Of a stretch of DNA of 64,000 bases, positions 19,776-50,925 are shown one piece after another. The first letter of the stretch is position 1. The number at the start of each line of letters is the position of its first letter. Position numbers and translations under genes: made by a program. The notes below the pieces were generated by a model. The model searched no databases, was not told the origin of the DNA, and saw nothing but the letters and a program-made list of their open reading frames with translations. Source of the DNA: Linnemannia hyalina (Eukaryota; Mortierellomycota; Mortierellomycetes; Mortierellales; Mortierellaceae); NCBI GenBank assembly GCA_019671135.1, contig JAHRHY010000013.1:1178001-1242000 (forward strand), given 5' to 3'.

Positions 19776-20209
19776 GCTCTATTGGATTTTTTCTTTGCGT
19801 TGGTTCGAAGAAGAGAGGTGAAGTAAGGGCAGGTGCTTGTGTTATGGGGGGGGGGGTAACGTTTTTGAGGTTGACGGAGTTGTGGTTTGATGTGGAGGAT
19901 GGAGAAGAAAGGAAAGGTGTTAGAGCGAGATATAAATAAATGAAGAATAGGAAGAGGTCCCAAAGTGAACTCATCCTAGGACGAACGAATGGCTCGAGAG
20001 GCATAATCCAGAAGTGAACCAACAATTGGCACCATGAACAGCCAAGAAAGTGTAAGAAAAGACGAGGAAGGAGGCGCACTGGCCTATGGAATGTGCTCCT
20101 GAAATCAGTCCGACCTATCCTTTTTACCTTGAGTGCAATTGCAATTGCTGAGATTGGCGTACAGTGCGAGGCAATGGTGGTAATCGAGGGGATTGATAGT
20201 CTGCTTGAT
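19776..20209. other. intergenic, WAP gene promoter side
   Basis: About 430 bp between the WAP gene start and the left edge of the inverted repeat. It includes a G run near 19850 and an A/T-rich element near 19928-19940 that could serve the minus-strand promoter. No gene is seen. Confidence 0.4.
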
Positions 20210-23200
20210 ATGTCCTCCGCAAAGAAAGATGTATGGTGTATTCTATGCTTAAGACCATCATCAGATACAAATAAAAATCTCAAGTCTAATATCAACGCGT
20301 TGTTCTACTCACACCCATGGTTTCCAACTCATGTGCCCCACAGGCCCTACACCTCAACTACTCTACTCTACTTCCAACTCTCATCCTTTGGTAGTTGCGT
20401 GTCCTTGTAATTGCACACGCTGCCAATTGGACAATGTTCGACTATCGACATCATTTCACCCCCCGTCATTTTCAAATTCAGAGTTCAGGAACAAAGACCT
20501 TGGCGAAGCTTTTCGTCGGTGGTGATTCGCTCGTTCGTCTTCTTGCTGCTTCGCCAAAATGGACTTTGGTACGCTTTCCTAGCTTTGCCATTGATTCTAA
20601 CTTGCCATCTCGTGGGTCCACGGTCCGCTCACCAAGCTTCGCCAAAGTCACTCTCCATTAGTTGATCAAAAGTGAAGGAAGGAAGGAGGAGAGAGAGAGA
20701 GAGAGAAAACCAAAGGAAGAGGGTCAACAGAGGTACTAAAAATAAAAAGGCGGTTCATGGTAGTCGGGACAGTTCAAAGAAAGTGGTGCCCTCTCTTTCA
20801 CTCTTACGAAGATTGACGCTCGAGTGGACAACCCTGGCGAAGGAGAGGTGAAAAGGAACAAAGAACTAGAGGGAGTAGAAAGGATCAAAGATGAGGGAAG
20901 CGAGGACCAGTCCGTATATTAGAAGTGGTATGGATTGAGGGATTGAGTGCCACAAGGCTTTTTCTCTCTTTGTCTCTTTGTGCACACTCCCCCTTCTTTC
21001 CCCCTTTCCTTTCTAACCGTTCTTTTTTCTTTTCTTGCTGCATCCCTTCTTCTCTCTTCTTCTCTCTTCTTCTCTCTTCTTCTCTCGTTACATTCCCTCC
21101 TTCCCCTCCTTCATTCCTCTTACATCCCACCCTTTCCTGACCCCATTCCTCTCAGGTACAACCGTGCTTGCATCCTCGCCTGCCCTTCGTGCCTTACTCC
21201 CATCGCCCCTCATCACCAACAAGAACGCACTGTGCACCGTCTGGTCATTCATCAACCCCAGGTCACAGTCCATCCCTTCATCGCTCGAACATACGCACCA
21301 ACCCAGATCGTGGGACTCGCCTGTAGGTAGGTGGAATATTCTTGACACGAAAAACACGAAAAGGAGTTACCGTCACCCGACAACCAAAATAATTAACCGT
21401 TCAATTATCACTTTGCGCGTGAAACGTAATGCCTTGTAGTGCCTCCTCGCCTCAAAGGCAGGCTACCACACTCGTTCGAGATTTCCCCTGCTGTTTCTCT
21501 TCTTTGTTTCTTCAGGAAACACCACGAAACACTATAGGACTCCCCCTGGTATGCTCTCAGTTTTTTAATCATGCCTCTGTCGAAAGTCTTTACGCTGTGT
21601 TGCAAGCCTCAGCATCTAACCAATCGATATTCTGTTGATAGGTCTCCTCCGTAACGGAAACACACTGACTCCTTAGTGGTAACACACGAATCACCCCTTG
21701 TCAACCAGCAAACACCAAAAAGCAAAGGCGGGTCCACACTTAACCAAGGTAACCCATCGACGTCTCACTTCTATGCCTCTTTCTATTTAAATGTCAAAGA
21801 TGGAAGAAATTAACCCAAAATCGCTCTTTTCTGCTGTGCTTAGTCTTCGACACTACCGACAAAAGACCCTACCCGCCTATGCTGCGCAGATACGAGGGCG
21901 ACAAAGATTACAACAAGCGTCCTTGCTACGATCCACAAGAACTTGCGCGTAAAATGCAAGCCGCCACAGAGGAACAAGTGCTGAAGTTGAAGAGAGTATG
22001 CCTGGATGTCCCAGAACCCGTGATCTATATTGAACCATTCGGCTATGATCGACCACTCGGCGTCATGCGATCACACAATAACACCAGCCTGGACGCCCCG
22101 GACCCTCAAACAAAACCCTTGATGTCGATAGCGCAAGAGTTCTTGGACAGCAACAAAAATGTCCTGTTGCTCATGGGCGATTCAGGTTCCGGCAAGACTG
22201 TCTTTGTCAAGCAGCTGGAGCGCAAACTGTGGGGACAATACAATGGCCCCAACGACGCCATCCCTATCCTCGTCAATCTACCAGAGATCAACAACACAGC
22301 CAATGATTTTCTCGGACAAGTGCTCAGGTCCAAAGGCTTTCAACCTAATCACATCCAGTTCCTGAGGCGCCGTGATCGCCGGTTCACCTTGATTTGCGAC
22401 GGATACGACGAGGCGCAAGTACAGGGAAACATATACAACCAAAACAAATTCAACAGTGACGGACAATGGAAAGTCAAACTGATCATCGCCTGCAGGAGCG
22501 ACAAAATCGGACGCGACTCAGACGGACGATTTCAACCCGAGGCGAACGACCGGTACAGCGGCCAGAAACTCGACGAATTTCAGAAAGCTGCTACAGCTTC
22601 GTTCACGTTTCGACAGATCAATGAGTACATCGAGGAATACGTGGCCAAACATCTTCAAGTGGCAGTTCGAGAGTCCTCCGGACGTGGTCAGGAATTAACA
22701 CAGCATTTTTCATCGGAGGTCCAGCCTTCCTCTCAGACCAGTCGTGTTTGGACTGTTCCCCAGTACAAGGAGACGTTGAACGATATCCCCAACCTGATGG
22801 AGCTGGTCAAGAACCCATACATCCTCTCCTTCATTCTGGAACTGCTGCCGGCTATCGCAGGGCCGCCACATGATGTTTCACGGTCTAGGGTCTCTTTCGA
22901 CGAGCTCTACAAGTACATTTTCGACGATTGGATGAAAGTCGGCAAGCTACGACTACACGGGAAAACGGGGAACTCCGTTGAGCAGCAGGCACTCAGCATG
23001 TTGATGGAGGACGGTTTCGAGCCGCGCTGTATGGAGTACTTGAAGGATTTGGCGGTGAATATCTTTGAGAGACAAGGTGGTGACCCGGTTGTTGAGTACG
23101 TGCACCTACGCCACAGGAACACGCCGACGAGTGGATGGAAAACCAGGTTTTTCGGTCCGGAACCAGAGTCGAGACTGTTGCAGGAATCGGTTCCCTTGAT

Positions 23201-26200
23201 CAAGTCCGGAAACTTTTACCGCTTCGTCCATCCTTCTTTATTGCAATATCTCTACTCGTTGGCTGTATTTGATCCAAGCGGTTCTGGAGATGATGATGAC
23301 CCTGGTGACGATGACCCTGGCACTGGCGGGTGGAGCTCAGGAGATTTCGATTCAGACAACTCGAGAGGTGGCGGAAGAGGTCTTATTTCAAGATCGAATA
23401 CCTGGTCGCTGTTGGAAGGAGGAACAGCCTCACGACAAGGGAGAGCATCGCAACACGCACCAGCGGTCGAGAAGGAGAAGGTTTTGGAGAAAGGGCGAGC
23501 TCTGGAGGAAGGTCACAAGCTGGGCCTCACCGACATTGCGAAGCGCTCCATGACTGTTCAATTTCTTGCCGACCGAGTTCAGAACCACCAATCCTTCAAG
23601 GAGCAGTTGGTGGAGACGGTGCGGGAATCCAGGAACAACAAAGGCATCGATCATACGTTGGCAGCAAACGCGATGACAATCTTGGTTCGCTCCGGCATGC
23701 GGTTCAACAGCGCCGATCTGCGTGGTATCAATATCAAGGGCGCCAATCTGACAGGTGGAGAGTTCGACTCGGCCGACTTGCAGGATGCGGACCTGACCAA
23801 CGTCACCTTCGACAAATGTTGGCTGCGCCAGGCAGAATTTCAAGGAGCCAAGTTGGGAGGAGCGCAGTTCGGAGAGAAGCCTTTGGACTTGCAGAACGTG
23901 CCGAATACCGCTGCCTATTCCGTCGACGGTGCCTTATATGCAGTCGCATTCACGAACGGGTCCATCACCATCTTTGACGCCACCAACTGGAACTCCATCC
24001 ATACGCGCCAGATTTCCAAGAGGAGTGTCACGGCCCTGGCGTTTTCACCGTTGGGTGGACTGTTGGCCTATGGTAACAGGACGGGAATGCTCGGGACATG
24101 GAGTTACAATAGCGAAACTTTGATGGCGTTCTCCGGCAAACATGATGGCTACATCAACAGTCTCATGTATTCTCCCAACGGAAGCCAAATTGCCACAGCT
24201 GGTGATGACGGAAAAGTTGCGGTGTGGGATGCGGTCACGGGCGGATGTGTGAAGGTCATGGTCGCACACAATGAACGAGCTTTGAGTGTCGCTTTCTCAC
24301 CTGACGGCAAGCTGCTTGTTTCTGGCGGTTCCGACGGCATCATTCAGCTTTGGGACGTACATACAGGCGACAAGGTTTATACCCAAGAGGGACATGACGA
24401 GGCCATATCCAGTATTCTGTTCTCCCCTGACGGACACCACATTGCATCCTCGAGCTCCGACAATACCATACGAATCTGGTCCGTACCGACAAGGCCATGG
24501 AGCCTGGAGGCGATCTGTCGTGGACATAGGGAGCGTATTACCAGCATTGCTTATTCGACCGATGGACAACATCTCGCTTCCGGTAGCGATGACAACACCA
24601 TTCGAACTTGGGACCCTCGCACTGGTAGCTCAGGACCTATCTTCCGAGGACACACCAACCAAGTCGTCAGCGTCGCTTACTCTCAGCGCGGATCACAACT
24701 CGCCTCATGCGGCAGAGACATGGCCCTTCGTGTCTGGGACTTTCGAGCCGCCGTCAAAGGAGCCGTTCTATTTGGGCGCACCAACAGCCTGCCGAGCGGA
24801 ATGTACCCCTATTCGACCATTAAGCGACATAACAACGACAGCGACAAACTCATACAGCCAACCCGCCCACGTCCTGCACGCACTTTCGGCTCAGAATCGT
24901 TCGGCACGAGAGGCGCGACTTGCATTGCAGTCTCTTCTGACGCCGTTCTGGCTGCCTCGGCGTCGATGAATGGCGGCACCTTTACTATCAACGTCTCGCT
25001 CGGAACTACCTCAGAGCATCGGTATGCTTTGAATGGCCACGCGAAGAAGATCTCCAGTATCACCTTTTCTCCCGACAGCCAGACCATTGCATCTGGGGAC
25101 TCCAATGGGGTCCTGCGCCTCTGGAACGCTGAATCCGGCGACGATATCTGGAACCGGAAAGAACACGACGGCAAGGTTATGAGCATCGCCTACTCTTCGA
25201 ATGGGGAACAAATCGTCACCAGCGGTGAGGATAGCACTGTTCGACTTTGGAAAGCATCGACAGGAGACATTGTCCACAGCTTTGACGCCGAAGGTTGCGA
25301 GATCCAGTGTGTCGCTTTCTCACCAAGTGGCAGATGGATTGCGTCTGGAGGTGAGGATGGAGTGGTGAGCCTATGGGACCCCGTCAACCTCATTCCTGGA
25401 CAGGTTTTCGATGGTGGCCACAACTGCAGCATCAACAGCATCGTTTTTTCATCGGACGGCATTCACATCGCCTCAGGAGGAGATGACAACAAGGTCAGGA
25501 TCTGGAACATCAATACAAGAACGGAAGTGCATGTCTTAGAGGAGCACACGGATCCAGTAAGGTGCCTTGCCTTCTCTCCATCAGGAGAGCGCATCGTGTC
25601 TGGCAGTGAAGATTGCACCATGAGAATTTGGAATGTCGCGGCTGGAGTTCTCGAATCGACTTCGGAACATAAGCATGGAGTCGCGACAGTTTCATTTTCC
25701 TCGGACGGCGCAAAGCTTTGGACGGGAACAGACTACTGCAAGGTTCACAGCTGGATTTGGGATTTCACTGGTCAGGAGACAGCCTTAACATCTACGTCTG
25801 CGTTTTCGAAGGATGGACGGCACGTCGCTTCGACTCTTGGTGGAAACGCGGTTCGACTCTGGGATACCGATTCAGGAAAACCACTACGTATTCTGCTTGG
25901 CCACTCTGAGACCATTGAGTCCATTTCGTTCTCCCCCGTCGACGACTTCATCGCGACCGGCAGCAGCGATAGCACGGTTCGGGTCTGGGACACAGCGACA
26001 GGAAAGTGCCCTTTTTTGCTAGAGGGTCACAGCGGCATTGTCACCAGTGTGGTGTTCTCTCCTGACGGCACACAGGTCGCGACATCTGGCATGGACCAAA
26101 CGTTGCGCTGGTGGGACTTGTCGGCCCCTAGGTCCGAATCTCTTTCGAGGGAAGGTGATGGAGCCTTGATCTCGCAGTTGGAGGCGCGCGCATCGGCTCC

Positions 26201-27028
26201 TATTGCGGTAATGGAAACGGACAGGACAGGAACTTCGATGGATGGAACACACCGAGCGATCGATGGAATGTATGTCCATGACGATTCAGGACTTTTCCAT
26301 GCTCCAGTGTATTCCCCGGATGGGAACGAGATCTCGGTCATCAGCGGAGAACACGGGATCTTGCGGTTCGACACTCAGTCCAAAGCCTCTCGCCGAGCGT
26401 TGGTTGGTCACACGGCTACGGCCACTTGCATCGCCTACTCACCATCTGGCGATATGATCGCGACCAGCAGCGAGGATGGGACAGCGCGCATATGGGACCC
26501 AGAGACAGGCAACGAGCTCGTCAACTTCGTGGGACACGAGAGCAGTGTCACCAGTGTCGCTTTTTCACCTCTCGGCCATCGACTCGCCACCAGTAGTGCT
26601 GACAAGAGCATTCGGCTCTGGAACGTCGCAGCCAACACACCAGATCAGCAAGCGGTCGGTCAGATTTTGTTAAGTCTCACAGCCCCGGTCCTCTGTATTG
26701 CCTATTCGCCTGATGGGAGGTTCCTCGCCTCTGGCAGCGAAGACCGGACGATGCGATTATGGGATGCTCTCACTGGAGATCGTTTGGCGGTGGTGGAAGA
26801 CTTTGCGGTCGGGGTCAAGACTATTCAATGGAAGAACTCGGCTCGAGGTGGGATGATTTTGGTGACTGGATGCAAGGAGAATCCGCTGCGGGTGTGGGAG
26901 GTAGTGGAAGGTACAGGTCGCCGGTACGAGGTTCGAAGGTACTGGGGAGCAGGAGTCGAATCGTTGGCGTTGTCGGGCACCCGTCTTGGACAGGAACATG
27001 GACTTACTGAGGTCGAGTGCAAACTGCT
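20210..27028 (+). repeat. left arm of 6.8-kb inverted repeat
   Basis: This segment reappears in reverse complement at 36461-43251. Homology starts abruptly at ATGTCCTCCGCAAAG (20210) and ends at AAACTGCT (27028), inside the last codons of the STAND gene. It spans about 1.67 kb of upstream DNA and the whole coding region. Differences are scattered substitutions and small indels (for example a 14-15 bp indel near 20907). Upstream DNA is as well conserved as the coding part, so the duplication is recent or maintained by conversion. Confidence 0.92.
21047..21087 (+). repeat. 10-bp tandem repeat (TTCTCTCTTC), left copy
   Basis: About four copies of a pyrimidine-only decamer in the upstream region of the first STAND gene. 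The purine version is present in the other arm at about 42393-42438. It is polypyrimidine DNA of the kind common in promoter regions. Confidence 0.7.
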
Positions 27029-27035
27029 GAGGTAG
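21879..27035 (+). CDS. NLR-like STAND NTPase: NACHT-pentapeptide-WD40 (copy A)
   Basis: An uninterrupted frame of 1718 residues. An N-terminal segment of about 90 residues (no known domain) leads to a NACHT-type P-loop NTPase: Walker A GDSGSGKT (100-107), Walker B LICDGYDE (171-178) and the IIACRS strand (202-207). Helical and winged-helix-like regions follow (about 290-465), then an acidic/Gly linker (466-545), pentapeptide repeats (about 608-668, ADLRGINIKGANLTGGEF) and about 22 WD40 units (about 675-1700), enough for three propellers. By analogy with fungal HET-E/NWD proteins it should be a ligand-sensing, oligomerising switch; the WD40 part would sense, but no HET, patatin or Toll-like effector domain is visible. 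The ATG is 35 bp after a likely 3' splice site (21842-21843), so a 5' leader intron is probable. It is a near-twin of the gene at 36283-41607 and less similar to that at 28073-33769. Confidence 0.9.
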   Translation: MLRRYEGDKDYNKRPCYDPQELARKMQAATEEQVLKLKRVCLDVPEPVIYIEPFGYDRPLGVMRSHNNTSLDAPDPQTKPLMSIAQEFLDSNKNVLLLMGDSGSGKTVFVKQLERKLWGQYNGPNDAIPILVNLPEINNTANDFLGQVLRSKGFQPNHIQFLRRRDRRFTLICDGYDEAQVQGNIYNQNKFNSDGQWKVKLIIACRSDKIGRDSDGRFQPEANDRYSGQKLDEFQKAATASFTFRQINEYIEEYVAKHLQVAVRESSGRGQELTQHFSSEVQPSSQTSRVWTVPQYKETLNDIPNLMELVKNPYILSFILELLPAIAGPPHDVSRSRVSFDELYKYIFDDWMKVGKLRLHGKTGNSVEQQALSMLMEDGFEPRCMEYLKDLAVNIFERQGGDPVVEYVHLRHRNTPTSGWKTRFFGPEPESRLLQESVPLIKSGNFYRFVHPSLLQYLYSLAVFDPSGSGDDDDPGDDDPGTGGWSSGDFDSDNSRGGGRGLISRSNTWSLLEGGTASRQGRASQHAPAVEKEKVLEKGRALEEGHKLGLTDIAKRSMTVQFLADRVQNHQSFKEQLVETVRESRNNKGIDHTLAANAMTILVRSGMRFNSADLRGINIKGANLTGGEFDSADLQDADLTNVTFDKCWLRQAEFQGAKLGGAQFGEKPLDLQNVPNTAAYSVDGALYAVAFTNGSITIFDATNWNSIHTRQISKRSVTALAFSPLGGLLAYGNRTGMLGTWSYNSETLMAFSGKHDGYINSLMYSPNGSQIATAGDDGKVAVWDAVTGGCVKVMVAHNERALSVAFSPDGKLLVSGGSDGIIQLWDVHTGDKVYTQEGHDEAISSILFSPDGHHIASSSSDNTIRIWSVPTRPWSLEAICRGHRERITSIAYSTDGQHLASGSDDNTIRTWDPRTGSSGPIFRGHTNQVVSVAYSQRGSQLASCGRDMALRVWDFRAAVKGAVLFGRTNSLPSGMYPYSTIKRHNNDSDKLIQPTRPRPARTFGSESFGTRGATCIAVSSDAVLAASASMNGGTFTINVSLGTTSEHRYALNGHAKKISSITFSPDSQTIASGDSNGVLRLWNAESGDDIWNRKEHDGKVMSIAYSSNGEQIVTSGEDSTVRLWKASTGDIVHSFDAEGCEIQCVAFSPSGRWIASGGEDGVVSLWDPVNLIPGQVFDGGHNCSINSIVFSSDGIHIASGGDDNKVRIWNINTRTEVHVLEEHTDPVRCLAFSPSGERIVSGSEDCTMRIWNVAAGVLESTSEHKHGVATVSFSSDGAKLWTGTDYCKVHSWIWDFTGQETALTSTSAFSKDGRHVASTLGGNAVRLWDTDSGKPLRILLGHSETIESISFSPVDDFIATGSSDSTVRVWDTATGKCPFLLEGHSGIVTSVVFSPDGTQVATSGMDQTLRWWDLSAPRSESLSREGDGALISQLEARASAPIAVMETDRTGTSMDGTHRAIDGMYVHDDSGLFHAPVYSPDGNEISVISGEHGILRFDTQSKASRRALVGHTATATCIAYSPSGDMIATSSEDGTARIWDPETGNELVNFVGHESSVTSVAFSPLGHRLATSSADKSIRLWNVAANTPDQQAVGQILLSLTAPVLCIAYSPDGRFLASGSEDRTMRLWDALTGDRLAVVEDFAVGVKTIQWKNSARGGMILVTGCKENPLRVWEVVEGTGRRYEVRRYWGAGVESLALSGTRLGQEHGLTEVECKLLR

Positions 27036-28072: not shown

Positions 28073-31000
28073 ATGAGTCGTAAACGAAACAGCTATAGCC
28101 CCGAAAGAGATTACACCAAACGTCTTTGTCTCGGTACCTCTTCTCTTCGACTTGAGGACCCAATGGAATCTCCTATTGAGCGCGAGCTGCAGAGGCTGAA
28201 GATCCGCTGTCTGCAGAAGGAGGAGCAGCCGCCGGGAAATTACATTGCGCCGCTCGGCAAGGATACAATGGATGCCTCCGACTCTTCTGCGTCTCCATTG
28301 CTGCCAACCGTTATGGACTTCCTGAAAGGAAAGCGAAAGGTGCTACTTGTCATGGGCGATGGCGGCTCGGGCAAGACTTATCTCCTGCGGCAACTTGAGC
28401 GAGAGCTATGGGGAAAGTATGCCGGCTCTGACACGGACGCAATCCCAATCCTCTTCGATCTCTCGCGCGTCGACACTCCCAAGTTCGAACTTCTTACGAA
28501 AGTATTCAAGAACGAAGGAATCAACAAGGAACACGTCCGTACCCTCAAGCTAAATAACCGTCCATTGGTCTTGCTCTGTGACGGATACGATGAGGCACAA
28601 GTGGGGGGCAACATTTATAACGGCAACAAGTTCAATAGCCATGGATATGGGTGCGTCAAGTTGATTATCGCCTGCAGGAGTCAAAAACTCGGAAGTGATT
28701 TTGAGAGTCAATTTCAACCCGAGGTGGAGGACCGGTACAACCCCAAGAAACTCGACCTGTTCCAGAAAGTCGCCATGGCTCCCTTCACTCGCAGCATGAT
28801 CGAGGAATACGTGGGGAAGTACATCGAATCCCCATCCCAGTTGGAGGTTCACCAGGATGCTTCACAGTCGTCCCAGAGTCCACCTACTTGGAGCGTTAAA
28901 CAATACATGATGGCATTGGCCGACATCCCTAACTTGATGGAGCTGGTCGGGAACCCCTTCATCCTCTCCGTCGTCTTGCGCCTGTTGCCGACCCTTACAA
29001 GTCCTACCCGAGATGACACTGGGTCGCATGTCTCTTTCGATGCTCTCTACAAGCTCGTATTCGAGAACTGGATGGAGGTAAACAAGCGTCGACTGTATTC
29101 GTATTCGCGAGAAAATATGAATGGCAACGAAGAGGCTTTCAGCGAGTTGATTGAGCACGACTTTGCGGCAGAGTGCCTGAAACACATGAAAGATCTGGCG
29201 GCCGAGATATTCAAGAACCAGAGGAAGGATGCCTTGTCCGTTCGACACACATTCAAGGATCCGGCCAAATGGAAAAACAGATTTTTTGGGAGTGATGCCA
29301 GAACGAGGCTGTTGCGTGAATCGTTACCTATGACTCGGTCTGGAAAAACATACAGTTTCCTCTTCCCTTCGTTGCTCGACTACCTCTATTCACTAGTGGT
29401 GTTTGATCCTAAAGGCCCTGACGAAGGCAACATGGACACTGATGGTTCAGGGACAGATGGTCTCGACTCGGAAGATTCGGCAAGAAGCGCAGAGCCTCTG
29501 TATTCGAAGTCGGGCAGCGGCCAATCGTCTGAGAGAGGGCGAGCGCTGCAGGAACAACAGGTGGTGGAGAGAGGGCAGGCCCTGAAGAAAGGGCACGCGC
29601 TGGGATTCACCAACATATCCGAGCGACCTATGGCCGTCCAGTTTCTTGCCGACCGAGTGCAGATCCACCAGGTCCTCAAGGAACAGTTAATCGAAACGGT
29701 CCACGAATCAGCCAACGGCGATGGAAACGACAAATGGCTGGCAGCGAACGCCATGGCCATCTTGGTCAAGTCCGGTATGCGTTTCAATGGTGCCAATCTG
29801 CGGAGCATCAAGATCAAGGGAGCCAACCTGACTGGAGGAGAGTTTGACTTTGCGGACTTGCGGGATGCGGACCTCAGAGATGTCACCTTCGACAAGTGTT
29901 GGCTGCGCGAGGCGAGACTAGACAGAGCACTGCTTGAGGGATCAAAGTTTGGCGAGTCACCATACACTCTATTCGAAGACGTCCCCACTGCTTCTGCATA
30001 CTCTCCAGATGGGACCTTGCACGCTGTTACCTTCGACCATAGATTCATTATCTTCTACTATACTTCCAATTGGACGCACGCCTTTCGATCCAGAGACTTC
30101 TCAGACGCCATCACCTCTGTGGCGTTCTCACCGGATAGCAAGACGCTGGCCTTTGGTGATGAGTTCGGGGTGCTCCGTCTTTGGAGGTACACTGCCACCA
30201 CTATTATCACTCCATTACCCAGTGCACACGCCGCTATCTCCGACATTGCCTTCTCTCCAGATGGAAGCCGTATTGCGACAGCTGGTCAAGACGGAGCGAT
30301 TGGAATTTGGGATGCTGCCATGACAGATGCTGGCTCGGGTGTACGCACTATTTATCTAGGCGCGGATGGTGGGAGGCCTTCTTGCGTTGCCTTCTCTCCC
30401 GACGGCAAGCGGCTTGTTTCTGGCGGTTCCGACGGCATCATTCAGCTTTGGAATTTGGACACAGGCAGTCTAGTTTCAACCCTGAAAACACACAATGCCG
30501 CCATTTCTCGAGTCCTCTTCTCGTCAGATGGACTCCAGATTGTCTCCTCGAGCTCTGATAATACCGTACGAGTGGGGTCCCCGTCGACAACAACCAAGCA
30601 GATCGTCTTTCGCGGCCATACGGCGGCAGTTACTGGATTTGTCTATTTGTCTGATGGGCAACTTGCCTCGTGCAGTCAAGACTCCACCATTCGCCTCTGG
30701 GACACTCGCAGCGGGGGATCTGGACCCGTTTTCCGAGGACATACCGACCATATCGTGAGCATTGCTTACTCTCGGGAGACAGCGCAACTTGTTTCATGCG
30801 GTAGGGAACGGACACGTCGTATATGGGACTGTGGGGCCGCCGTCAAAGGATCGATTTTATTTGGGCGCACCAACACCAAGTCAAGCGGGATGTACCCGTA
30901 TTCGGTCATCAACGACACCACCTTCCGACCGACTATTCCTAGTTCACGCCGCTTCTTTTCCTCCGAATTGTTCGACACAAAAGTCACCGACATCGCAACT

Positions 31001-33769: not shown

Positions 33770-34399
33770 GGTTCTTTTTTTTTTTTGTCAGTAGTAAGCT
33801 TTTGTATTATTTTTTTTCTTTGGTCGATGTTTTGTTGAACTAAACCTTTCTGAGTGAAAAAAAACGGTGGTGCCAATGGTAGAAGAATGGTGTTGACGGT
33901 CTAATTTGTGGTTTCTCTTGGGTACCTGGAGGAGCTAGAGAACTAGACGATTATCAGATTCGTGATGAAAAGAATGGAGGACATGGTGCAGTACCGACAA
34001 AAACAAACACAAGTCGAAGAACCAAAGAGAGGAAGGGGATGCCTTCACTCTTTGTCTCTCCTTCGATCATGGCCGATGCGCGATCGCTCTTATATTTTGA
34101 GGCCGGACGAGGCTGCTGGTATTATGATCAGAGAAGGAAGAAAGGGAGTGGTGGAAGTGAGAGAGGATGCAGCGATTGAATATGAGATTCAAGAAGGGGG
34201 ATGCTGCGGATGCATTACAAGATCATGAAGAAGTGAGAGAGTCGCAGACATGACGACGGAAAAAAAAGTGAACGCATTCTTTTTTTACCAGGGACGCGTC
34301 CTGTGGCTGAACAAATAGTATTAAGGTACAATGACTAATTTTTAAGTATTTGATTAACACGTTTATTCGTCTCAGATCTACCAAATCCAAGATAACGTA
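33770..34399. other. intergenic after copy B
   Basis: About 630 bp holding the T-rich 3' region of copy B and an unremarkable plus-strand frame (33962-34228) without recognisable features. It separates copy B from the convergent WD40 pseudogene tail. Confidence 0.45.
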
Positions 34400-36282
34400 C
34401 TATTCTAGAAAAGCGCGTTTTTGGCGGAGCAAAGTCCTATTGAATGTACTGAGATCGTTGACACCGTCGAACTCGGCGCCCAACATTCAAAGCCCACCAC
34501 TCTTCGGCCTCCAGATCAGCTGGACTGGAATACCGTCGTCGTCTCGCTCAATCAGTTGCCAGACATGCACCGACTTGTTGGCATCGACAGTGTACAACTT
34601 CAACCGGTTCTCCATCCAAGTGACAGACAAAAATCCAGCAATAAAACCATCAACGACCGCCAAACATTGTCCCGTAGCCCCGTCCCATAACCGCATTATT
34701 CTGTCGTCGCTTCCAGTGGCAATATATCGAATGAATGGAGAATAAACGATGCAACGAACATAGTCGCCATGGCCGTCGAGGATGTTTAAAGGCTCTCCTG
34801 ACGCGCAATCCCATATCCGAAGAGTGCGTTTTGCACTGGTTGAAGCAACGTACTGATCATTCGGAGAGAATGTAGCAGTTGTCATCTTGTCAGTGTCGCA
34901 CTCCAAGACGACGAATGGATCCCCGGTGCTCAAACTCTAGAGTCGCACCGTCTTGTCCTCACTAGCCGAGACCAGTAAATCTCCAGCTGTTGACAATGCG
35001 AGACTTGAGGTACTGTCGGCGTGGCCCTGTAATACCATCCCTTGGGTTCCCGAGGCATCCCAGAAGTGGATAATGAAATCGTTGTTCGCCGTTACGATCT
35101 GGCCATTTGGTGTGAAATCGGGGCAGTAGAAAATCCTTGGTCGTCTCTGATGACAGCGCCGCCTTCTTTGGATCCCAGAGCCGAAGAGCCCCGTCCGATG
35201 CTCTTGTGAGGACCTGCTCACCGCTCAATGAAAACTGGACGTCTGAGACAAAAGAGCCAGATTACAAGAAACTGGACGTATGTAAACAGGCTCCGTCTGG
35301 TAAGTCCACAAGCGTTCAGCCTCATCGTTGCTTGACGAAACCAAAGGTCGACCGTCCGGTGAGAGTGTAAAGCTGGTGATAATGTCAATGTGTCCACTCA
35401 GGACAGCACCTTAGGCTCCTGAGGCGAAATCTCACAACTGGATGGTGTCGTCATCATGGATGGTTGCAATGTGTTGAGTAGTCGGGACAAGATCGGTGTC
35501 AGTTCCTGTCAGCATGTCACCCCCTTTAGTCACTGCCCCACCTCCAACTACGCCCGCCTCGCTCCGCCTCGACCGTCAGTTGAATACGCAACGCTTCTCA
35601 CTCGTCCTGTGTGGCCTCGAAGAACATATCTAGGCATGTTAGAGTCCGGGTCCCATAGCTTGACGGTACCATCCCAGCTGCCAGAAGCGATCTGCGATCC
35701 ACATGGCGAGAATGCAACACTCGATACCGCACCGGTGTGTCTAATGAAGACTGACTTGACGACACCTCATTTCGGATCCCAAATTCGTATGGTCTCGCCC
35801 CAGCTGTCAGACATAAGACTCGAGTCTGTAGAAGAGTAAGCCATGCTGGTAACAACCTCTGGGTGACCCCGAAGAACACCAACAGAGGCGCCTGAGCTAG
35901 TGTCCCAAAGCGTCACTGTGCTGTCTTCTCTTACTGACGCGAGCTGCTGATTGTGTGGAGAGAACGCGATGCAGTTGATACTGCCCTCGTGATCGGAAAA
36001 GGTGAGAATGAGTTGCCCCGACATGGCATCCTAAAGATAAATGGTTTCGTCCTCGCTGGCTGAACCGATACACTTGCCGTCTGGAGAAAAGGCGATGTTG
36101 CAGACAAAGTAGCCTTGACTTGGCAAAATGAGAAAGAGCACTCCGGTCTTTGTACACCACAGCCTCACTGTCCCATCATGGCTGCCCGAAGCAACCTGAC
36201 TGCCATTCGGGGAAAAGGTGACGCAGGAGACACAATTGACATGGCCTCTCAAAGGCTCATCGCTCTTACCAGAGGAAGCATT
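34400..36282 (-). pseudogene. decayed WD40 tail of a fourth STAND gene
   Basis: Reading leftward from the stop of copy C, WD40 repeats continue for about 1.9 kb but are broken by stops and at least one frameshift (near 35150-35220). Visible pieces include SCVTFSPNGSQVASGSHDGT, AFSPHNQQLASVREDSTVTL, SVAFSPCGSQIASGSWDGTV and YVASTSAKRTLRIWDCASGE. The end (LSTFNRTLLRQKRAF, stop at 34400-34402) matches the C-terminal style of this family. Four stops fall exactly where the Trp of a WD40 unit should be: TAG at 36283-36285, 36031-36033 and 34937-34939, TGA at 35432-35434. The N-terminal NTPase part is missing; in its place stands copy C. It is not expected to make a protein of its own. Confidence 0.85.
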
Positions 36283-39200
36283 CTAGAGCCGCATCGTTCC
36301 ATCCTTAATGCCAGTCGCGAAACGGTTCTCAGTAGGTGAGACAGCAACACTTGAGATCCCATTAGTGTGGCCGCTGCAGATAAGTCGGAGCTCCCCTGTC
36401 TCAACATCCCAGATCCGAGCCGTCATGTCAAAGCTTCCTGATACCAACCATTTCCTCCGTAGCAGTTTGCACTCGACCTCAGTAAGTCCATGTTCCTGTC
36501 CAAGACGGGTGCCCGACAACGCCAACGATTCGACTCCTGCTCCCCAGTACCTTCGAACCTCGTACCGGCGACCTGTACCTTCCACTACACCCCACACCCG
36601 CAGCGGATTCTCCTTGCATCCAGTCACCAAAATCATCCCACCTCGAGCCGAGTTCTTCCATTGAATAGTCTTGACCCCGACCGCAAAGTCTTCCACCACC
36701 ACCAAACGATCTCCAGTGAGAGCATCCCATAACCGCATCGTCCGGTCTTCGCTGCCAGAGGCGAGGAACCTCCCATCAGGCGAATAGGCAATACAGAGGA
36801 CCGGGGCTGTGTGACTTAACAAAATCTGACCGACCGCTTGCTGATCTGGTGTGTTGGCTGCGACGTTCCAGAGCCGAATGCTCTTGTCAGCACTACTGGT
36901 GGCGAGTCGATGGCCGAGAGGTGAAAAAGCGACACTGGTGACACTGCTCTCGTGTCCCACGAAGTTGACGAGCTCGTTGCCTGTCTCTGGGTCCCATATG
37001 CGCGCTGTCCCATCCTCGCTGCTGGTCGCGATCATATCGCCAGATGGTGAGTAGGCGATGCAAGTGGCCGTAGCCGTGTGACCAACCAACGCTCGGCGAG
37101 AGGCTTTGGACTGAGTGTCGAACCGCAAGATCCCGTGTTCTCCGCTGATGACCGAGATCTCGTTCCCATCCGGGGAATACACTGGAGCATGGAAAAGTCC
37201 TGAATCGTCATGGACATACATTCCATCGATCGCTCGGTGTGTTCCATCCATCGAAGTTCCTGTCCTGTCCGTTTCCAATACCGCAATAGGAGCCGATGCG
37301 CGCGCCTCCAACTGCGAGATCAAGGCTCCATCACCTTCCCTCGAAAGAGATTCGGACCTAGGGGACGACAAGTCCCACCAGCGCAACGTTTGGTCCATGC
37401 CAGATGTCGCGACCTGTGTGCCGTCAGGAGAGAACACCACACTGGTGACAATGCCGCTGTGACCCTCTAGCAGAAAAGGGCACTTTCCTGTCGTTGTGTC
37501 CCAGATCCGAACCGTGCTATCGCTGCTGCCGGTCGCGATGAAGTCGTCGACGGGGGAGAACGAAATGGACTCAATGGTCTCAGAGTGGCCAAGCAGAATA
37601 CGTAGTGGTTTTCCTGAATCGGTATCCCAGAGTCGAACCGCGTTTCCACCAAGAGTCGAAGCGACGTGCTGCCCATCCTTCGAAAACGCAGACGTAGATG
37701 TTAAGGCTGTCTCCTGACCAGTGAAATCCAAGGTCCAGCGGTGAACCTTGTAGTCGTCTGTTCCCGTCCAAAGCTTTGCGCCGTCCGAGGAAAATGAAAC
37801 TGTCGCGACTCCATGCTTATGTTCCGAAGTCGATTCGAGAACTCCAGCCGCGACATTCCAAATTCTCATGGTGCAATCTTCACTGCCAGACACGATGCGC
37901 TCTCCTGATGGAGAGAAGGCAAGACACCTTACTGGATCCGTGTGCTCCTCTAAGACATGCACTTCCGTTCTTGTATTGATGTTCCAGATCCTGACCTTAT
38001 TGTCATCTCCTCCTGAGGCGATGTGAATGCCGTCCGGTGAAAAAACGATGCTGTTGATACTGCAGTTGTGGCCACCATCGAAAACCTGTCCAGGAATGAG
38101 GTTGACGGGGTCCCATAGGCTCACCACTCCATCCTCGCCTCCAGACGCAATCCAACTGCCACTTGGCGAGAAAGCGACACACTGAATCTCGCAACCTTCG
38201 GCGTCAAAGCTGTGGACAATGTCTCCTGTCGATGCTTTCCAAAGTCGAACAGTGCTATCCGCGCCGCTGGTGACGATTTGTTCCCCATTCGAAGAGTAGG
38301 CGATGCTCATAACCTTGCCGTCGTGTTCTTTCCGGTTCCAGATATCGTCGCCGGATTCAGCGTTCCAGAGGCGCAGGATCCCATTGGAGTCCCCAGATGC
38401 AATAGTTTGGCTGTCGGGAGAAAAGGTGATACTGGAGATCTTCTTCGCGTGGCCATTCAAAGCATACAGATACTCTGAGGTAGTTCCGAGCGAGACATTG
38501 ATAGTAAAGGTGCCGCCATTCATCGACGCCGAGGCAGCCAGAACGGCGTCAGAAGAGACCGCAATGCAAGTCGCGCCTCTCGTGCCGAACGATTCTGAGC
38601 CGAAAGTGCGTGCAGGACGTGGGCGGGTTGGCTGTATGAGTTTGTCGCTGTCGTTGTTATGTCGCTTAATGGTCGAATAGGGATACATTCCGCTCGGCAG
38701 GCTGTTGGTGCGCCCAAATAGAACGGCTCCTTTGACGGCGGCTCGACAGTCCCAAACACGAAGGGCCATGTCTCTGCCGCAAGAGGCGAGTTGTGATCCG
38801 CACTGAGAGTAAGCGACACTAACGACTTGGTCGGTGTGTCCTCGGAAGATATGTCCTGAGCTACCAGTGCGAGGGTCCCAAGTTCGAATGGTGCGGTCTT
38901 CGCTGCAGGAAGCGAGATGTTGTCCATCGGTCGAATAAGCAATGCTGGTAATACGCTCCCTATGTCCACGACAGATCGCCTCCAGGCTCCATGGCCTTGT
39001 CGATACGGACCAGATTCGTATGGTATTGTCGGAGCTCGAGGATGCAATGTGGTGTCCGTCAGGGGAGAACAGAATACTGGATATGGCCTCGTCATGTCCT
39101 TCTTGGGTATAAACCTTGTCGCCTGTATGTACGTCCCAAAGCTGAATGATGCCGTCGGAACCGCCAGAAACAAGCAACTTGCCGTCAGGTGAGAAAGCGA

Positions 39201-41607
39201 CACTCGAAGCTCGTTCATTGTGTGCGACCATGACCTTCACACATCCGCCCGTGACCGCATCCCACACCGCAACTTTTCCGTCATCACCAGCTGTGGCAAT
39301 TTGGCTTCCGTTGGGAGAATACGCGAGACTGTTGATGTAGTCATCATGTTTGCCGGAGAACACTATCAAAGTTTCGCTGCTGTAATTCCATGTCCCGAGC
39401 ATCCCAGTCCTGTTACCATAGGCCAACAGTCCACCCAACGGTGAAAACGCCAGGGCCGTGACACTCCTCTTGGAAATCTGGCGCGTATGGATGGAGTTCC
39501 AGTTGGTGGCGTCAAAGATGGTGATGGACCCGTTCGTGAATGCGACTGCATATAAGGCACCGTCGACGGAATAGGCAGCGGTATTCGGCACGTTCTGCAA
39601 GTCCAAAGGCTTCTCTCCGAACTGCGCTCCTCCCAACTTGGCTCCTTGAAATTCTGCCTGGCGCAGCCAACATTTGTCGAAGATGACGTTAGTCAGGTCC
39701 GCATCCCGCAAGTCGGCCGAGTCGAACTCTCCACCTGTCAGATTGGCGCCCTTGATACTGATACCGCGCAGATCGGCGCTGTTGAACCGCATGCCGGAGC
39801 GAACCAAGATTGTCATCGCGTTTGCTGCCAACGTATGATCGATGCCTTTGTTGTTCCTGGATTCCCGCACCGTCTCCACCAACTGCTCCTTGAAGGATTG
39901 GTGGTTCTGAACTCGGTCGGCAAGAAATTGAACAGTAATTGAGCGCTTCGCAATGTTGGTGAGGCCCAGCTTGTGACCTTCCTCCAGAGCTCGCCCTTTC
40001 TCCAAAACCTTCTCCTTCTCGACCGCTGGTGCGTGTTGCGATGCTCTCCCTTGTCGTGAGGCTGTTCCTCCTTCCAACAGCGACCAGGTATTCGATCTTG
40101 AAATAAGACCTCTTCCGCCACCTCTCGAGTTGTCTGAATCGAAATCGCCTGAGCTCCACCCGCCAGTGCGAGGGTCGTCATCACCAGAGTCACCATCATC
40201 TCTAGAACCGTTAGAATCAAATACAGCCAACGAGTAGAGATACTGCAATAGAGAAGGATGGACGAAGCGGTAAAAGTTTCCGGACTTGATCAAGGGAACC
40301 GATTCCTGCAACAGTCTCGACTCTGGGTCCGGACCGAAAAACCTGGTTTTCCATCCACTCGTCGGCGTGTTCCTGTGGCGTAGGTGCACGTACTCAACAA
40401 CCGGGTCACCTCCTTGTCTCTCAAAGATATTCACCGCCAAATCCTTCAAGTACTCCATACAGCGCTGCTCGAAACCGTCCTCCATCAACATGCTGAGTGC
40501 CTGCTGCTCAACGGAGTTCCCCGTTTTCCCGTATAATCGTAGCCTGCCGACTTTCATCCAGTGACCGAAAAGGTACTTGTAGAGCTCGTCGAATGAGACC
40601 CTAGACCGTGAAACATCATGAGGCGATCCTGCGATAACCGGCAGCAGTTTCAGAATGAAGGAGAGGATGTATGGGTTCTTGACCAGCTCCATCAAGTTGG
40701 GGATATCGTTCAACGTCTCCTTGTACTGGGGGACAGTCCAAACACGACTGGTCTGAGAGGAAGGCTGGACCTCCGATGAAAAATGCTGTGTTAATTCCTG
40801 ACCACGTCCGGAGGACTCTCGAACCGCCACTTGAAGATGCTTGGCCACGTATTCCTCGATGTACTCATTGATCTGTCGAAACGTGAACGAAGCTGTAGCA
40901 ACCTTCTGAAATTCGTCGAGTTTCTGGCCGCTGTACCGGTCGTTCGCCTCGGGTTGAAATCGTCCGTCTGAGCGTCCGATTTTGTCGCTCCTGCAGGCGA
41001 TGATCAGTTTGACTTTCCATTGTCCGTCACTGTTGAATTTGTTTTGGTTGTATATGTTTCCCTGTACTTGCGCCTCGTCGTATCCGTCGCAAATCAGGAT
41101 GAACCGGCGATCACGGCGCCTCAGGAACTGGATGTGATTAGGGTGAAAGCCTCTGGACTTAAGCACTTGCCGGAGAAAATCGTTGGCTGTGTTGGTGAAC
41201 TCTGGTAGATTGACGAGGATAGGGATGGCGTCGTTGGGGCCATTGTATTTCCCCCACAGTTCGCGCTCCAGCTGCTTGGCAAAGACAGTCTTGCCGGAAC
41301 CTGGATCGCCCATGAGCAACAAGACCTTGTTGTTGCTGTCCAAGAACTCTTGCGCTATCGACATCAAGGGTTTTGTTTGAGGGTCCGGGGCGTCCAGGCT
41401 GGTGTTATTGTGTGATCGCATGACGCCGAGTGGTCGATCATAGCCGAATGGTTCAATATAGATCACGGGTTCTGGGACATCCAGGCATACTCTCTTCAAC
41501 TTCAGCACTTGTTCCTCTGTGGCGGCTTGCATTTTACGCGCAAGTTCTTGTGGATCGTAGCAAGGACGCTTGTTGTAATCTTTGTCGCCCTCGTATCTGC
41601 GCAGCAT
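36283..41607 (-). CDS. NLR-like STAND NTPase: NACHT-pentapeptide-WD40 (copy C, extended)
   Basis: A frame of 1774 residues almost identical to copy A across the whole length. Walker A is GDPGSGKT here (Ser to Pro relative to A), Walker B LICDGYDE, with the same helical, linker, pentapeptide and WD40 parts. Substitutions are denser in the NACHT region (NNKVLL for NKNVLL, EFTNT for EINNT, one residue lost near DGRFQP) than in the WD40 region. Where copy A stops (KLLR), copy C reads on for about 58 residues into foreign WD40 sequence (WLVSGSFDMTARIWDVETGE ... GIKDGTMRL) before a TAG that replaces a WD40 Trp. It is therefore a chimera between the duplicated gene and a resident WD40 gene whose remains continue downstream. 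The upstream 1.6 kb is shared with copy A, so expression is likely similar. Confidence 0.88.
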   Translation of the reverse strand: MLRRYEGDKDYNKRPCYDPQELARKMQAATEEQVLKLKRVCLDVPEPVIYIEPFGYDRPLGVMRSHNNTSLDAPDPQTKPLMSIAQEFLDSNNKVLLLMGDPGSGKTVFAKQLERELWGKYNGPNDAIPILVNLPEFTNTANDFLRQVLKSRGFHPNHIQFLRRRDRRFILICDGYDEAQVQGNIYNQNKFNSDGQWKVKLIIACRSDKIGRSDGRFQPEANDRYSGQKLDEFQKVATASFTFRQINEYIEEYVAKHLQVAVRESSGRGQELTQHFSSEVQPSSQTSRVWTVPQYKETLNDIPNLMELVKNPYILSFILKLLPVIAGSPHDVSRSRVSFDELYKYLFGHWMKVGRLRLYGKTGNSVEQQALSMLMEDGFEQRCMEYLKDLAVNIFERQGGDPVVEYVHLRHRNTPTSGWKTRFFGPDPESRLLQESVPLIKSGNFYRFVHPSLLQYLYSLAVFDSNGSRDDGDSGDDDPRTGGWSSGDFDSDNSRGGGRGLISRSNTWSLLEGGTASRQGRASQHAPAVEKEKVLEKGRALEEGHKLGLTNIAKRSITVQFLADRVQNHQSFKEQLVETVRESRNNKGIDHTLAANAMTILVRSGMRFNSADLRGISIKGANLTGGEFDSADLRDADLTNVIFDKCWLRQAEFQGAKLGGAQFGEKPLDLQNVPNTAAYSVDGALYAVAFTNGSITIFDATNWNSIHTRQISKRSVTALAFSPLGGLLAYGNRTGMLGTWNYSSETLIVFSGKHDDYINSLAYSPNGSQIATAGDDGKVAVWDAVTGGCVKVMVAHNERASSVAFSPDGKLLVSGGSDGIIQLWDVHTGDKVYTQEGHDEAISSILFSPDGHHIASSSSDNTIRIWSVSTRPWSLEAICRGHRERITSIAYSTDGQHLASCSEDRTIRTWDPRTGSSGHIFRGHTDQVVSVAYSQCGSQLASCGRDMALRVWDCRAAVKGAVLFGRTNSLPSGMYPYSTIKRHNNDSDKLIQPTRPRPARTFGSESFGTRGATCIAVSSDAVLAASASMNGGTFTINVSLGTTSEYLYALNGHAKKISSITFSPDSQTIASGDSNGILRLWNAESGDDIWNRKEHDGKVMSIAYSSNGEQIVTSGADSTVRLWKASTGDIVHSFDAEGCEIQCVAFSPSGSWIASGGEDGVVSLWDPVNLIPGQVFDGGHNCSINSIVFSPDGIHIASGGDDNKVRIWNINTRTEVHVLEEHTDPVRCLAFSPSGERIVSGSEDCTMRIWNVAAGVLESTSEHKHGVATVSFSSDGAKLWTGTDDYKVHRWTLDFTGQETALTSTSAFSKDGQHVASTLGGNAVRLWDTDSGKPLRILLGHSETIESISFSPVDDFIATGSSDSTVRIWDTTTGKCPFLLEGHSGIVTSVVFSPDGTQVATSGMDQTLRWWDLSSPRSESLSREGDGALISQLEARASAPIAVLETDRTGTSMDGTHRAIDGMYVHDDSGLFHAPVYSPDGNEISVISGEHGILRFDTQSKASRRALVGHTATATCIAYSPSGDMIATSSEDGTARIWDPETGNELVNFVGHESSVTSVAFSPLGHRLATSSADKSIRLWNVAANTPDQQAVGQILLSHTAPVLCIAYSPDGRFLASGSEDRTMRLWDALTGDRLVVVEDFAVGVKTIQWKNSARGGMILVTGCKENPLRVWGVVEGTGRRYEVRRYWGAGVESLALSGTRLGQEHGLTEVECKLLRRKWLVSGSFDMTARIWDVETGELRLICSGHTNGISSVAVSPTENRFATGIKDGTMRL

Positions 41608-43251
41608 AGGCGGGTAGGGTCTTTTGTCGGTAGTGTCGAAGACTAAGCACAGCAGAAAAGAGCGATTTTGGGTTAATTTCTTCCATCTTTGACATTTAAA
41701 TAGAAAGAGGCATAGAAGTGAGACGTCGATGGGTTACCTTGGTTAAGTGTGGACCCGCCTTTGCTTTTTGGTGTTTGCTGGTTGACAAGGGGTGATTCGT
41801 GTGTTACCACTAAGGAGTCAGTGTGTTTCCGTTACGGAGGAGACCTATCAACAGAATATCGATTGGTTAGATGCTGAGGCTTGCAACACAGCGTAAAGAC
41901 TCTCGACAGAGGCACGATTAAAAAACTGAGAGCATACCAGGGGGAGTCCTATAGTGTTTCGTGGTGTTTCCTGAAGAAACAAAGAGGGGAAACAGCAGGG
42001 GAAATCTCGAACGAGTGTGGTAGCCTGCCTTTGAGGCGAGGAGGCACTACAAGGCATTACGTTTCACGCGCAAAGTGATAATTGAACGGTTAATTATTTT
42101 GGTTGTCGGGTGACGGTAACTCCTTTTCGTGTTTTTCGTGTCAAGAATATTCCACCTACCTACAGGCAAGTCCCACGATCCGGGTTGGTGCGTATGTTCG
42201 AGCGATGAAGGGATGGACTGTGACCTGGGGTTGATGAATGACCAGACGGTGCACAGTGCGTTCTTGTTGGTGATGAGGGGCGATGGGAGTAAGGTACGAA
42301 GGGTAGGCAGGGATGCAAGCACAGTTGTACCTGAGAGGAATGGGGTCAGGAAAGGGTGGGATGTAAGAGGAATGAAGGAGGGGAAGGAGGGAATGTAACG
42401 AGAGAAGAAGAGAGAAGAAGAGAGAAGAAGAGAGAAGAAGGGATGCAGCAAGAAAAGCAAAAAGAACGGTTAGAAAGGAAAGGGGGAAAGAAGGGGGAGT
42501 GTGCACAAAGAGACAAAGAGAGAAAAAGCCTTGTGGCACTCAATCCCTCAATCCATACCACTTCTAATATACGGACTGGTGGTGTCTGTTTCTCCTCGCT
42601 TCCCTCATCTTTGATCCTTTCTACTCCCTCTAGTTCTTTGTTCCTCTTCACCTCTCCTTCGCCAGGGTTGTCCACTCGAGCGCCAATCTTCGTAAGAGTG
42701 AAAGAGAGGGCACCACTCTCTTTGAACTGTCCCGACTACCATGAACCGCCTTTTTATTTTTAATACCTCTGTTGACCCTCTTCCTTTGGTTTTCTCTCTC
42801 TCTCTCTCCTCCCTCCTTCCTTCACTTTTGATCAACGAATGGAAAGTGACTTTGGCGAGGCTAGGTGAGCGGACCGTGGACCCACGAGATGGCAAGTTAG
42901 AATCAATGGCAAAGCTAGGAAAGCGTACCAAAGTCCATTTTGGCGAAGCAGCAAGAGGACGAACGAGCGAATCACCACCGACGAAAAGCTTCGCCAAGGT
43001 CTTTGTTCCTGAACTCTGAATTTGAAAATGACGGGGGGTGAAATGATGTCGATAGTCGAACATTGTCCAATTGGCAGCGTGTGCAATTACAAGGACACGC
43101 AACTACCAAAGGGTGAGAGTTGGAAATAAAGTAGTTGACCATGGGGGTGTGTGTAGAACAGCGCGTTGATATTAGACTTGAGATTTTTATTTGTATCTGA
43201 TGATGGTCTTAAGCATAGGACACACCATACATCTTTCTTTGCGGAGGACAT
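36461..43251 (-). repeat. right arm of 6.8-kb inverted repeat
   Basis: Reverse complement of 20210-27028. The inner end lies at AGCAGTTT (36461), within the coding sequence of copy C; the outer end is at 43251, about 240 bp before the start of the kinase pseudogene. The arm is 6791 bp against 6819 bp on the left, with a spacer of 9432 bp. Confidence 0.92.
42393..42438 (-). repeat. 10-bp tandem repeat, right copy
   Basis: Purine-strand version (GAGAGAAGAA) of the decamer array at 21047-21087, in the equivalent upstream position of copy C. About four units are present in each arm. Confidence 0.7.
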
Positions 43252-50822: not shown

Positions 50823-50925
50823 TAGTGGACGACCTCTAATGACTCAGTCACGTAGAAGAGCAAGAGTTAGCAAGTGTAATGGCAAAGTGCTTCATGCAAC
50901 GTGTTAAAGTCGCAAAATCTTCAGA

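What the first reader, a model, noticed from the sequence alone, without database searches (positions are those of the whole stretch)
20210..43251. NLR-like receptor island built as a 23-kb inverted-repeat structure
Three intact giant STAND genes and one dead tail form a compact cluster. Seen directly: two near-identical 6.8-kb arms in opposite orientation, each a complete gene with 1.6 kb of upstream DNA, around a 9.4-kb spacer with a divergent paralogue. Known: NACHT-WD40 proteins in filamentous fungi (HET-E, HET-D, NWD families) act in non-self recognition and evolve by birth and death. Inference: this is an active diversification site for innate recognition in an early-diverging fungus, where such systems are little described.
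Basis: partly seen in the sequence, partly recalled or inferred. Interest (0 to 1): 0.8.

Follow-up and report, generated by a model that had tools for sequence, protein, structure and literature searches.

The report
Fungal NLR cluster with inverted duplicate
A soil fungus carries three giant intracellular receptor genes side by side, one of them a recent upside-down copy that landed on the remains of another receptor-like gene, and the genes appear to have swapped a piece of their sensing part; it is a clear small example of a receptor family already known in these fungi.

Summary
Arms 20209-27028 (+) and 36461-43252 (-) match at 96.9% over 6833 columns around a 9.4-kb spacer, each with an intact NACHT-pentapeptide-WD40 gene; a third, divergent gene lies between them. 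The genome is inferred to be Linnemannia hyalina SCG-10. The inverted repeat is not exceptional: the genome has at least 117 NACHT loci, other clusters are larger, and 12 of 24 sampled same-contig paralogue pairs are inverted.

New here: (1) arm B is the derived copy; its 3' end is fused in frame to a decayed WD40 gene, giving gene 3 a chimeric C-terminus. (2) About 420 bp of the WD40 region is shared between gene 2 and gene 1 at dS 0.24, against 0.77-2.06 in 11 other blocks: cassette exchange; M. hygrophila proteins show the same hot spot. (3) The trio belongs to a 29-protein clade; in 28 the protein starts just before the NACHT domain, without the ARM_5 domain found at 88 of 117 loci here.

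The family (NACHT-PPR-WD40 of Mortierellomycota) is already published. Function in recognition is inferred, not shown. A strict AU test of the cassette was not significant (p = 0.073).

The parts
20209..27028 (+). Arm A of the inverted repeat (source copy, inferred)
   Evidence: after the arm ends the DNA of arm A still reads like the orthologues' C-terminus (RGAIVV after the stop, cf. RGAVVI in P0008)
36461..43252 (-). Arm B of the inverted repeat (derived copy, inferred)
   Evidence: joins foreign WD40 sequence at 36460/36461
21879..27035 (+). Gene 1, NACHT-pentapeptide-WD40, 1718 aa (P0001)
22161..22640 (+). NACHT core match of gene 1 (PF05729)
   Evidence: C5:1200161-1200640
28073..33769 (+). 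Gene 2, divergent paralogue, 1898 aa (P0002)
   Evidence: 51% aa identity to gene 1
28340..28828 (+). NACHT core match of gene 2
   Evidence: C5:1206340-1206828
36283..41607 (-). Gene 3, copy of gene 1 with a foreign WD40 tail of 58 codons, 1774 aa (P0003)
40843..41325 (-). NACHT core match of gene 3
   Evidence: C5:1218843-1219325
36283..36460 (-). Foreign WD40 codons read in frame as the C-terminus of gene 3
34106..36460 (-). Decayed WD40 gene ('dead tail'); 3 stops in the 36447-35569 part, two where relatives have Trp; the 34106-35461 part has a relative at C5:1385632-1386903, 76-80% identical
25176..25598 (+). Exchanged WD40 cassette in gene 1 (residues 1100-1240)
37851..38332 (-). Same cassette in gene 3 (blastn limits)
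31090..31706 (+). Cassette-containing block, copy 1, in gene 2
31729..32345 (+). Tandem copy 2 of the block in gene 2 (period 213 aa, 74% aa identity to copy 1)
21585..22156 (+). 572-bp stretch without a difference between the arms (possible inter-arm conversion tract)
   Evidence: longer than in any of 2000 permutations (max 495)

Best explanation
This is a small, recently rearranged cluster of NLR-like receptor genes of the NACHT-pentapeptide-WD40 family of Mortierellaceae, in (by inference) Linnemannia hyalina. Shown by sequence: gene 1 with 1.65 kb of upstream DNA exists a second time in inverse orientation; the copy (gene 3) is joined at its last codons to the WD40 part of another, now decayed gene and reads into it for 58 codons. 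Shown by sequence: a block of about 420 bp in the sensor region is far more alike between gene 2 and gene 1 (and gene 3) than the rest, at silent sites too. Inferred: gene 1 was copied onto a resident minus-strand WD40 gene; later recombination still homogenises parts of the arms; exchange of WD40 cassettes between paralogues renews the sensor. Inferred from the family: the WD40 propellers bind a cue, the NACHT ATPase switches and oligomerises. No classical N-terminal effector domain is present, so the output must come from a partner, from the short N-terminus, or from the oligomer itself; I think a partner is most likely.
Against: No expression, strain or phenotype data. dN/dS 0.39 between arm genes gives no sign of positive selection. 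The strict AU test of type-1 monophyly on the cassette alone does not reject (p = 0.073; without the M. hygrophila proteins there is no conflict at all; eight other blocks p 0.30-0.52). The earlier significant AU values used a poor null tree, and with it three of five control blocks were rejected as well. NG86 dS values near 2 are saturated. The M. hygrophila proteins are database gene models, one partial. Clumped differences could partly reflect constraint at the promoter and start.
Confidence: 0.66

Rival explanations
1. One arm is an assembly artefact (a false or misplaced duplicate).
For: Long near-identical inverted arms are a classic source of misassembly (recalled); I could not inspect reads.
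Against: 147 differences in 6624 aligned sites, unique junctions and flanks on each arm, PacBio reads of about 22 kb. The published assembly has 52 contigs, the one held here 50.
Confidence: 0.05
2. A long-lived palindrome kept alike by arm-to-arm gene conversion, older than the species split, rather than a recent copy.
For: M. hygrophila also has two gene-1-type proteins (P0004, P0005) that group with each other as the arm genes do (support 0.92 and 0.88); a 572-bp identical stretch and clumped differences.
Against: Independent duplication explains the same tree; the position and orientation of the M. hygrophila copies are unknown; dS is low throughout (0.025-0.076 by region, 0.048 overall).
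Confidence: 0.15
3. Not an immune receptor: the STAND proteins serve symbiont control or another internal signalling role, and the duplicates are near-neutral birth and death.
For: No function is known; a related protein occurs in the endosymbiont Mycoavidus (P0082; PMC11291939); dN/dS is below 1.
Against: At least 117 loci, clusters, cassette exchange and decay resemble recognition families; all three ORFs are intact.
Confidence: 0.2
4. The high identity in the cassette is protein-level conservation of a functional propeller surface, not exchange.
For: Strict AU test not significant (p = 0.073).
Against: Silent sites are also alike (dS 0.24 against 0.77-2.06), limits are sharp near residues 1095 and 1240, and orthologues P0006-P0008 are less like P0001 there than gene 2 is (68-69% against 79%).
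Confidence: 0.08

Closest known systems
NACHT-PPR-WD40 NOD-like receptors of Mortierellomycota, shared with Mycoavidus (PMC11291939, passages read)
   Same: Same domain order NACHT, pentapeptide repeats, WD40; same fungal group; a Mycoavidus homologue is among the hits (P0082, 37%)
   Different: 88 of 117 loci in this genome and P0082 carry ARM_5 in front of NACHT; the trio does not
NLR_Helical N-terminal class of Mortierellomycetes and Pezizomycotina (PMC9815663, passages read)
   Same: Same fungal group, and also shared with Mycoavidus
   Different: An N-terminus of more than 500 aa is absent in the trio. That NLR_Helical and ARM_5 are the same domain is my inference
HNWD genes of Podospora anserina, HET-D/HET-E/HET-R (PMC4986451 and PMC12222747 passages; PMC2873952 listing only)
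   Same: NACHT-WD40; exchange of WD40 sequence within and between paralogues
   Different: No room for a HET domain before NACHT (its size recalled); repeats are divergent (no high internal conservation); exchange is of a multi-blade cassette, not of near-identical single repeats
Fungal NLR clusters of Sordariales (PMC12258605, passages read)
   Same: NLRs clustered within 40 kb, proposed to aid diversification
   Different: Clusters there hold 2-5 genes, 16 of 272 made of paralogous copies; here up to 16 genes, with many close paralogues. I applied the 40-kb limit only, not their limit on genes in between

Membership tests
NLR-like STAND NTPase | NACHT ATPase domain with Walker A | tested here: met
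   PF05729 over cut-off for all three genes; Walker A at residue 98, 93 and 98 in genes 1, 2 and 3; fold of gene 1 matches NOD2/NLRC4/NLRP3
NLR-like STAND NTPase | C-terminal superstructure-forming repeats | tested here: met
   15, 17 and 15 WD40 stretches (PF00400)
NLR-like STAND NTPase | N-terminal effector or signalling domain | tested here: not met
   Only 18 residues precede the first helix (19-43) of the model, 1-14 with pLDDT under 50; the six best structural matches begin at model residue 24-32, in NLRC4 at residue 94-95, i.e. behind its CARD (CARD position recalled). No ARM_5 found upstream
NLR-like STAND NTPase | Cue-triggered oligomerisation and signalling | not testable with these tools
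   needs biochemistry
Mortierellomycota NACHT-PPR-WD40 family | NACHT then pentapeptide repeat then WD40 | tested here: met
   PF05729 and PF00805 listed for P0001 and P0002, WD40, coil of regularly spaced short strands from about residue 613 in the model
Mortierellomycota ARM_5-bearing NLRs | ARM-like N-terminal domain PF23948 | tested here: not met
   Of the PF23948 matches on C5 the nearest ends at 1079612 (window starts at 1178001); 100 of 108 candidates were scored. No tblastn hit at E 1e-3 in 18400-21900, 27020-28100 or 41590-45300 with 121 proteins
HNWD (HET-D/HET-E) family | WD40 repeats with high internal conservation (over 85% across at least 100 aa) | tested here: not met
   Best ungapped 100-residue offset window 41% and 42% in genes 1 and 3; 83% in gene 2, at the 213-aa period of its tandem block
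HNWD (HET-D/HET-E) family | Concerted exchange of WD40 sequence between paralogues | tested here: inconclusive
   Silent-site and informative-site evidence is for it; the strict topology test is not significant, p = 0.073
Head-to-head sensor/helper NLR pair | Divergent head-to-head arrangement | tested here: not met
   Genes 1 and 2 are in tandem and gene 3 converges on them
Conversion-maintained palindrome | Arms older than species split yet nearly identical | tested here: inconclusive
   no orthologous DNA available

The most novel reading that the evidence does not exclude
The trio represents an old branch of fungal NLRs that has shed its effector domain and works as a linked pair of sensor-only receptors. 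Gene-1-type (subclade B) and gene-2-type (subclade A) proteins lie on one contig in L. hyalina and, judging by equal contig lengths and neighbouring tags, in M. hygrophila and L. zychae (EC991), so the two may form a hetero-oligomer, or call on ARM_5-bearing NLRs as helpers, while swapping a WD40 cassette with each other to change specificity.
Probability: 0.14. Interest if true: 0.68.

Novelty: new member of a known kind. Interest (0 to 1): 0.42.

Why it matters
The locus shows three steps of receptor evolution in one place: copying, fusion with a dying neighbour, and (on silent-site evidence) exchange of a sensor cassette between paralogues. That makes birth-and-death and recombination testable in an early-diverging fungus with over a hundred such genes; the passages I read describe the family, its helical N-terminus and its sharing with an endosymbiont, not such events. 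If the effector-less clade truly depends on partners, fungi would have receptor networks like those of plants and animals.

Tried and rejected
Rejected: that the inverted layout is special. Among 32 loci fetched (two of them, L004 and L012, the same place; a biased sample of the 117, window not included), 24 same-contig pairs of at least 85% over at least 2.5 kb split 12 inverted, 12 direct (the pairs are not independent).

Rejected: a hidden ARM_5 exon upstream of the trio. Rejected as proof: AU tests with the NACHT tree as null, because gene 2's two block versions were forced to be sisters and the long type-2 branch attached arbitrarily, and because three of five control blocks were also rejected; the stricter constraint test gave p = 0.073.

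Led nowhere: two genome-contig scans for bacterial relatives (40 and 385 pattern matches, none confirmed), so the Mycoavidus link rests on database proteins only. Whether the family moved from bacterium to fungus or back could not be decided: the tree is unrooted. Searches at the two 5' arm ends found no dispersed repeat at arm A and, beside arm B, a flank that is itself repeated on C5; the DNA just behind arm A's 3' end was not searched, and no transposon annotation was run on the window.

Full report
Where it is. The window is C5:1178001-1242000 of a 51.5-Mb, 50-contig genome. Contigs C7 (1,790,564 bases) and C48 (2,461,853) have exactly the lengths given for contigs of Linnemannia hyalina proteins KI688_004064, KI688_004080 and KI688_011272 (P0094, P0096, P0048), so I take it to be L. 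hyalina SCG-10 (whole text of PMC8444964 read: 51,558,230 bp, 52 contigs, PacBio, HGAP4).

The observation. The inverted repeat is as described: 20209-27028 and 36461-43252, 96.9% over 6833 columns (core 97.5% over 6679). The arms hold genes 1 and 3, pointing at each other, with gene 2 (51% aa identity to gene 1) between. All three ORFs are open. Between 20400 and 27028 the arms differ at 147 of 6624 aligned sites, 108 transitions and 39 transversions; dN 0.018, dS 0.048 for the genes. The differences are clumped (variance 4.99 against 2.13 per 100 bp), and one 572-bp identical stretch is longer than in any of 2000 permutations (maximum 495); a second run of 465 bp is within the permuted range. 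I read this as some inter-arm conversion, with constraint near the start as an alternative.

Which arm came first. At the 3' end both arms read ...TGCAAACTGCT and then part. Arm A continues with codons like the C-termini of orthologues (RGAIVV after a TAG stop; RGAVVI in P0008, RGATVD in P0006). Arm B continues with WD40 codons of another gene, in frame for 58 codons. So arm B is the derived copy, and gene 3 is chimeric. The other gene is a remnant from 36460 down to about 34106, with three stops in the 36447-35569 part, two of them where relatives have Trp, and a frame change near 35.5 kb. For its 34106-35461 part the best match elsewhere in the genome is C5:1385632-1386903, 76-80% identical, next to a fourth gene-1-like piece (C5:1387071-1389221, 717 open codons, blastn 88.7% over 1978 columns to arm A) without a match to the NACHT part; the 3' end of an 847-codon ORF with an endonuclease domain (PF03372), as in LINE elements (recalled), lies 356 bp beyond the piece.

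Sensor cassette. Gene 1 against gene 2 (block copy 1) has dS 0.24 and dN 0.11 over residues 1100-1240; the other 11 blocks of at least 59 codons have dS 0.77-2.06, and one of 30 codons 1.10. At sites where an orthologue and gene 2 differ and P0001 agrees with one of them, P0001 follows gene 2 at 28 of 41 (own P0006), 30 of 45 (P0007) and 24 of 34 (P0008) in the cassette, against 71 of 590, 67 of 561 and 83 of 520 elsewhere. In M. hygrophila, P0005 follows gene 2 at 35 of 45 against 32 of 693, and P0004 follows the second tandem version of the gene 2 block at 21 of 35 against 32 of 693. Gene 2 itself holds the block twice (74% aa identity), which P0024 and P0025 do not. Against this: the strict AU test on the cassette does not reject monophyly of the gene-1 type (p = 0.073), and without the two M. 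hygrophila proteins there is no conflict; eight other blocks gave p 0.30-0.52. I trust the silent-site evidence more, because protein conservation would not lower dS.

The family in the genome. The union of two searches gives 117 NACHT loci, a lower bound since only the best candidates are scored. 88 have an ARM_5 match within 1.5 kb upstream on the same strand; 29 do not, among them the trio but also fragments and short frames. 79 of 117 lie within 40 kb of another; the largest cluster has 16 (C6), the next 9 (C7); the window's has 3. Residues 1-468 of gene 1 match only gene 2 and gene 3 from their start; the other listed hits are 37-47% identical and begin at query residue 54 or later, with two exceptions at 31 and 38 (its list is cut).

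The clade. I had 121 proteins (the 120 listed of 296 hits, plus gene 3) and the fetched loci. In a FastTree of 156 NACHT cores the trio sits in a 29-protein clade (support 1.0); the named members are Mortierellaceae. In 28 of 29 Walker A lies at residue 55-144; the exception, P0009, is a 2941-aa partial, apparently fused model. Among the 92 other proteins the median is 619, but 26 of the 90 with a Walker A match are also at or below 160, so a short N-terminus alone is not unique. The clade splits into A (gene 2 side, 0.94) and B (gene 1 side, 0.69). The nearest outsiders are the second NACHT of P0041 and L002, an ARM_5-bearing gene here, which suggests loss of ARM_5; rooting is by midpoint, so this is a lead.

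Structure. AlphaFold of residues 1-680 of gene 1 (40 sequences, mean pLDDT 74.6, pTM 0.72) gives residues 1-14 at low confidence, a helix 19-43, a NACHT with helical parts, a low-confidence linker 469-538 and a coil of short strands as in pentapeptide repeats. Best solved matches are NOD2, NLRC4 and NLRP3. The match starts behind the CARD of NLRC4 (CARD position recalled), so an effector domain is missing.

Literature. PMC11291939 (passages) describes NACHT-PPR-WD40 NOD-like receptors of Mortierellomycota as acquired from, or shared with, Mycoavidus; PMC9815663 (passages) describes the helical N-terminus; PMC4986451 and PMC12222747 (passages) describe repeat exchange in HNWD genes; PMC12258605 (passages) describes clusters in Sordariales.

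Verdict. A new member of a known kind.

Noticed in passing
C5:1387071-1393793 (loci L033, L034): A fourth gene-1-like piece, cut off before its NACHT part, with a LINE-like element (847-codon ORF with endonuclease domain, and a 581-codon ORF without a Pfam match) 356 bp beyond it; convergent with a WD40 relic related to the window's dead tail.
   Followed up: partly
43494-45255: The flank outside arm B recurs as two tandem-like copies at C5:1270.0-1275.4 kb, pieces 78-92% identical.
   Followed up: partly
20664-20823: Stretches of about 60-140 bp inside the upstream part of arm A match eight other places in the genome at 70-86%: a short dispersed repeat.
   Followed up: no
P0082, P0101, P0103: The Mycoavidus protein P0082 and two unnamed near relatives fall within a 21-member clade (support 1.0) whose other printed members are fungal or unnamed, not beside the trio; unrooted, but the published direction bacterium to fungus deserves a rooted test.
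   Followed up: partly
P0011, P0028, P0031, P0035, P0037: Five database proteins with two NACHT regions, all listed with ARM_5; the second NACHT of P0041 is next to the ARM-less clade, so the clade might descend from the second half of a double-NACHT gene. Could also be fused gene models.
   Followed up: no
N-termini of the ARM-less clade, e.g. 21879-21935: A short basic motif of the type D-x-x-KR-x-C (DYNKRPC in gene 1, DYTKRLC in gene 2) is shared by several members of both subclades.
   Followed up: no
50922-51259: Tandem duplication of about 156 bp at 96.8% identity.
   Followed up: no
45223-47418: A 731-codon ORF next to the island with a weak, sub-threshold LRR match (PF24758).
   Followed up: no
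C18:612500-645700 and C23:3700-40600: Two further inverted NLR pairs, 92.5% over 5518 and 92.4% over 4020 columns, 26 and 30 kb apart.
   Followed up: partly
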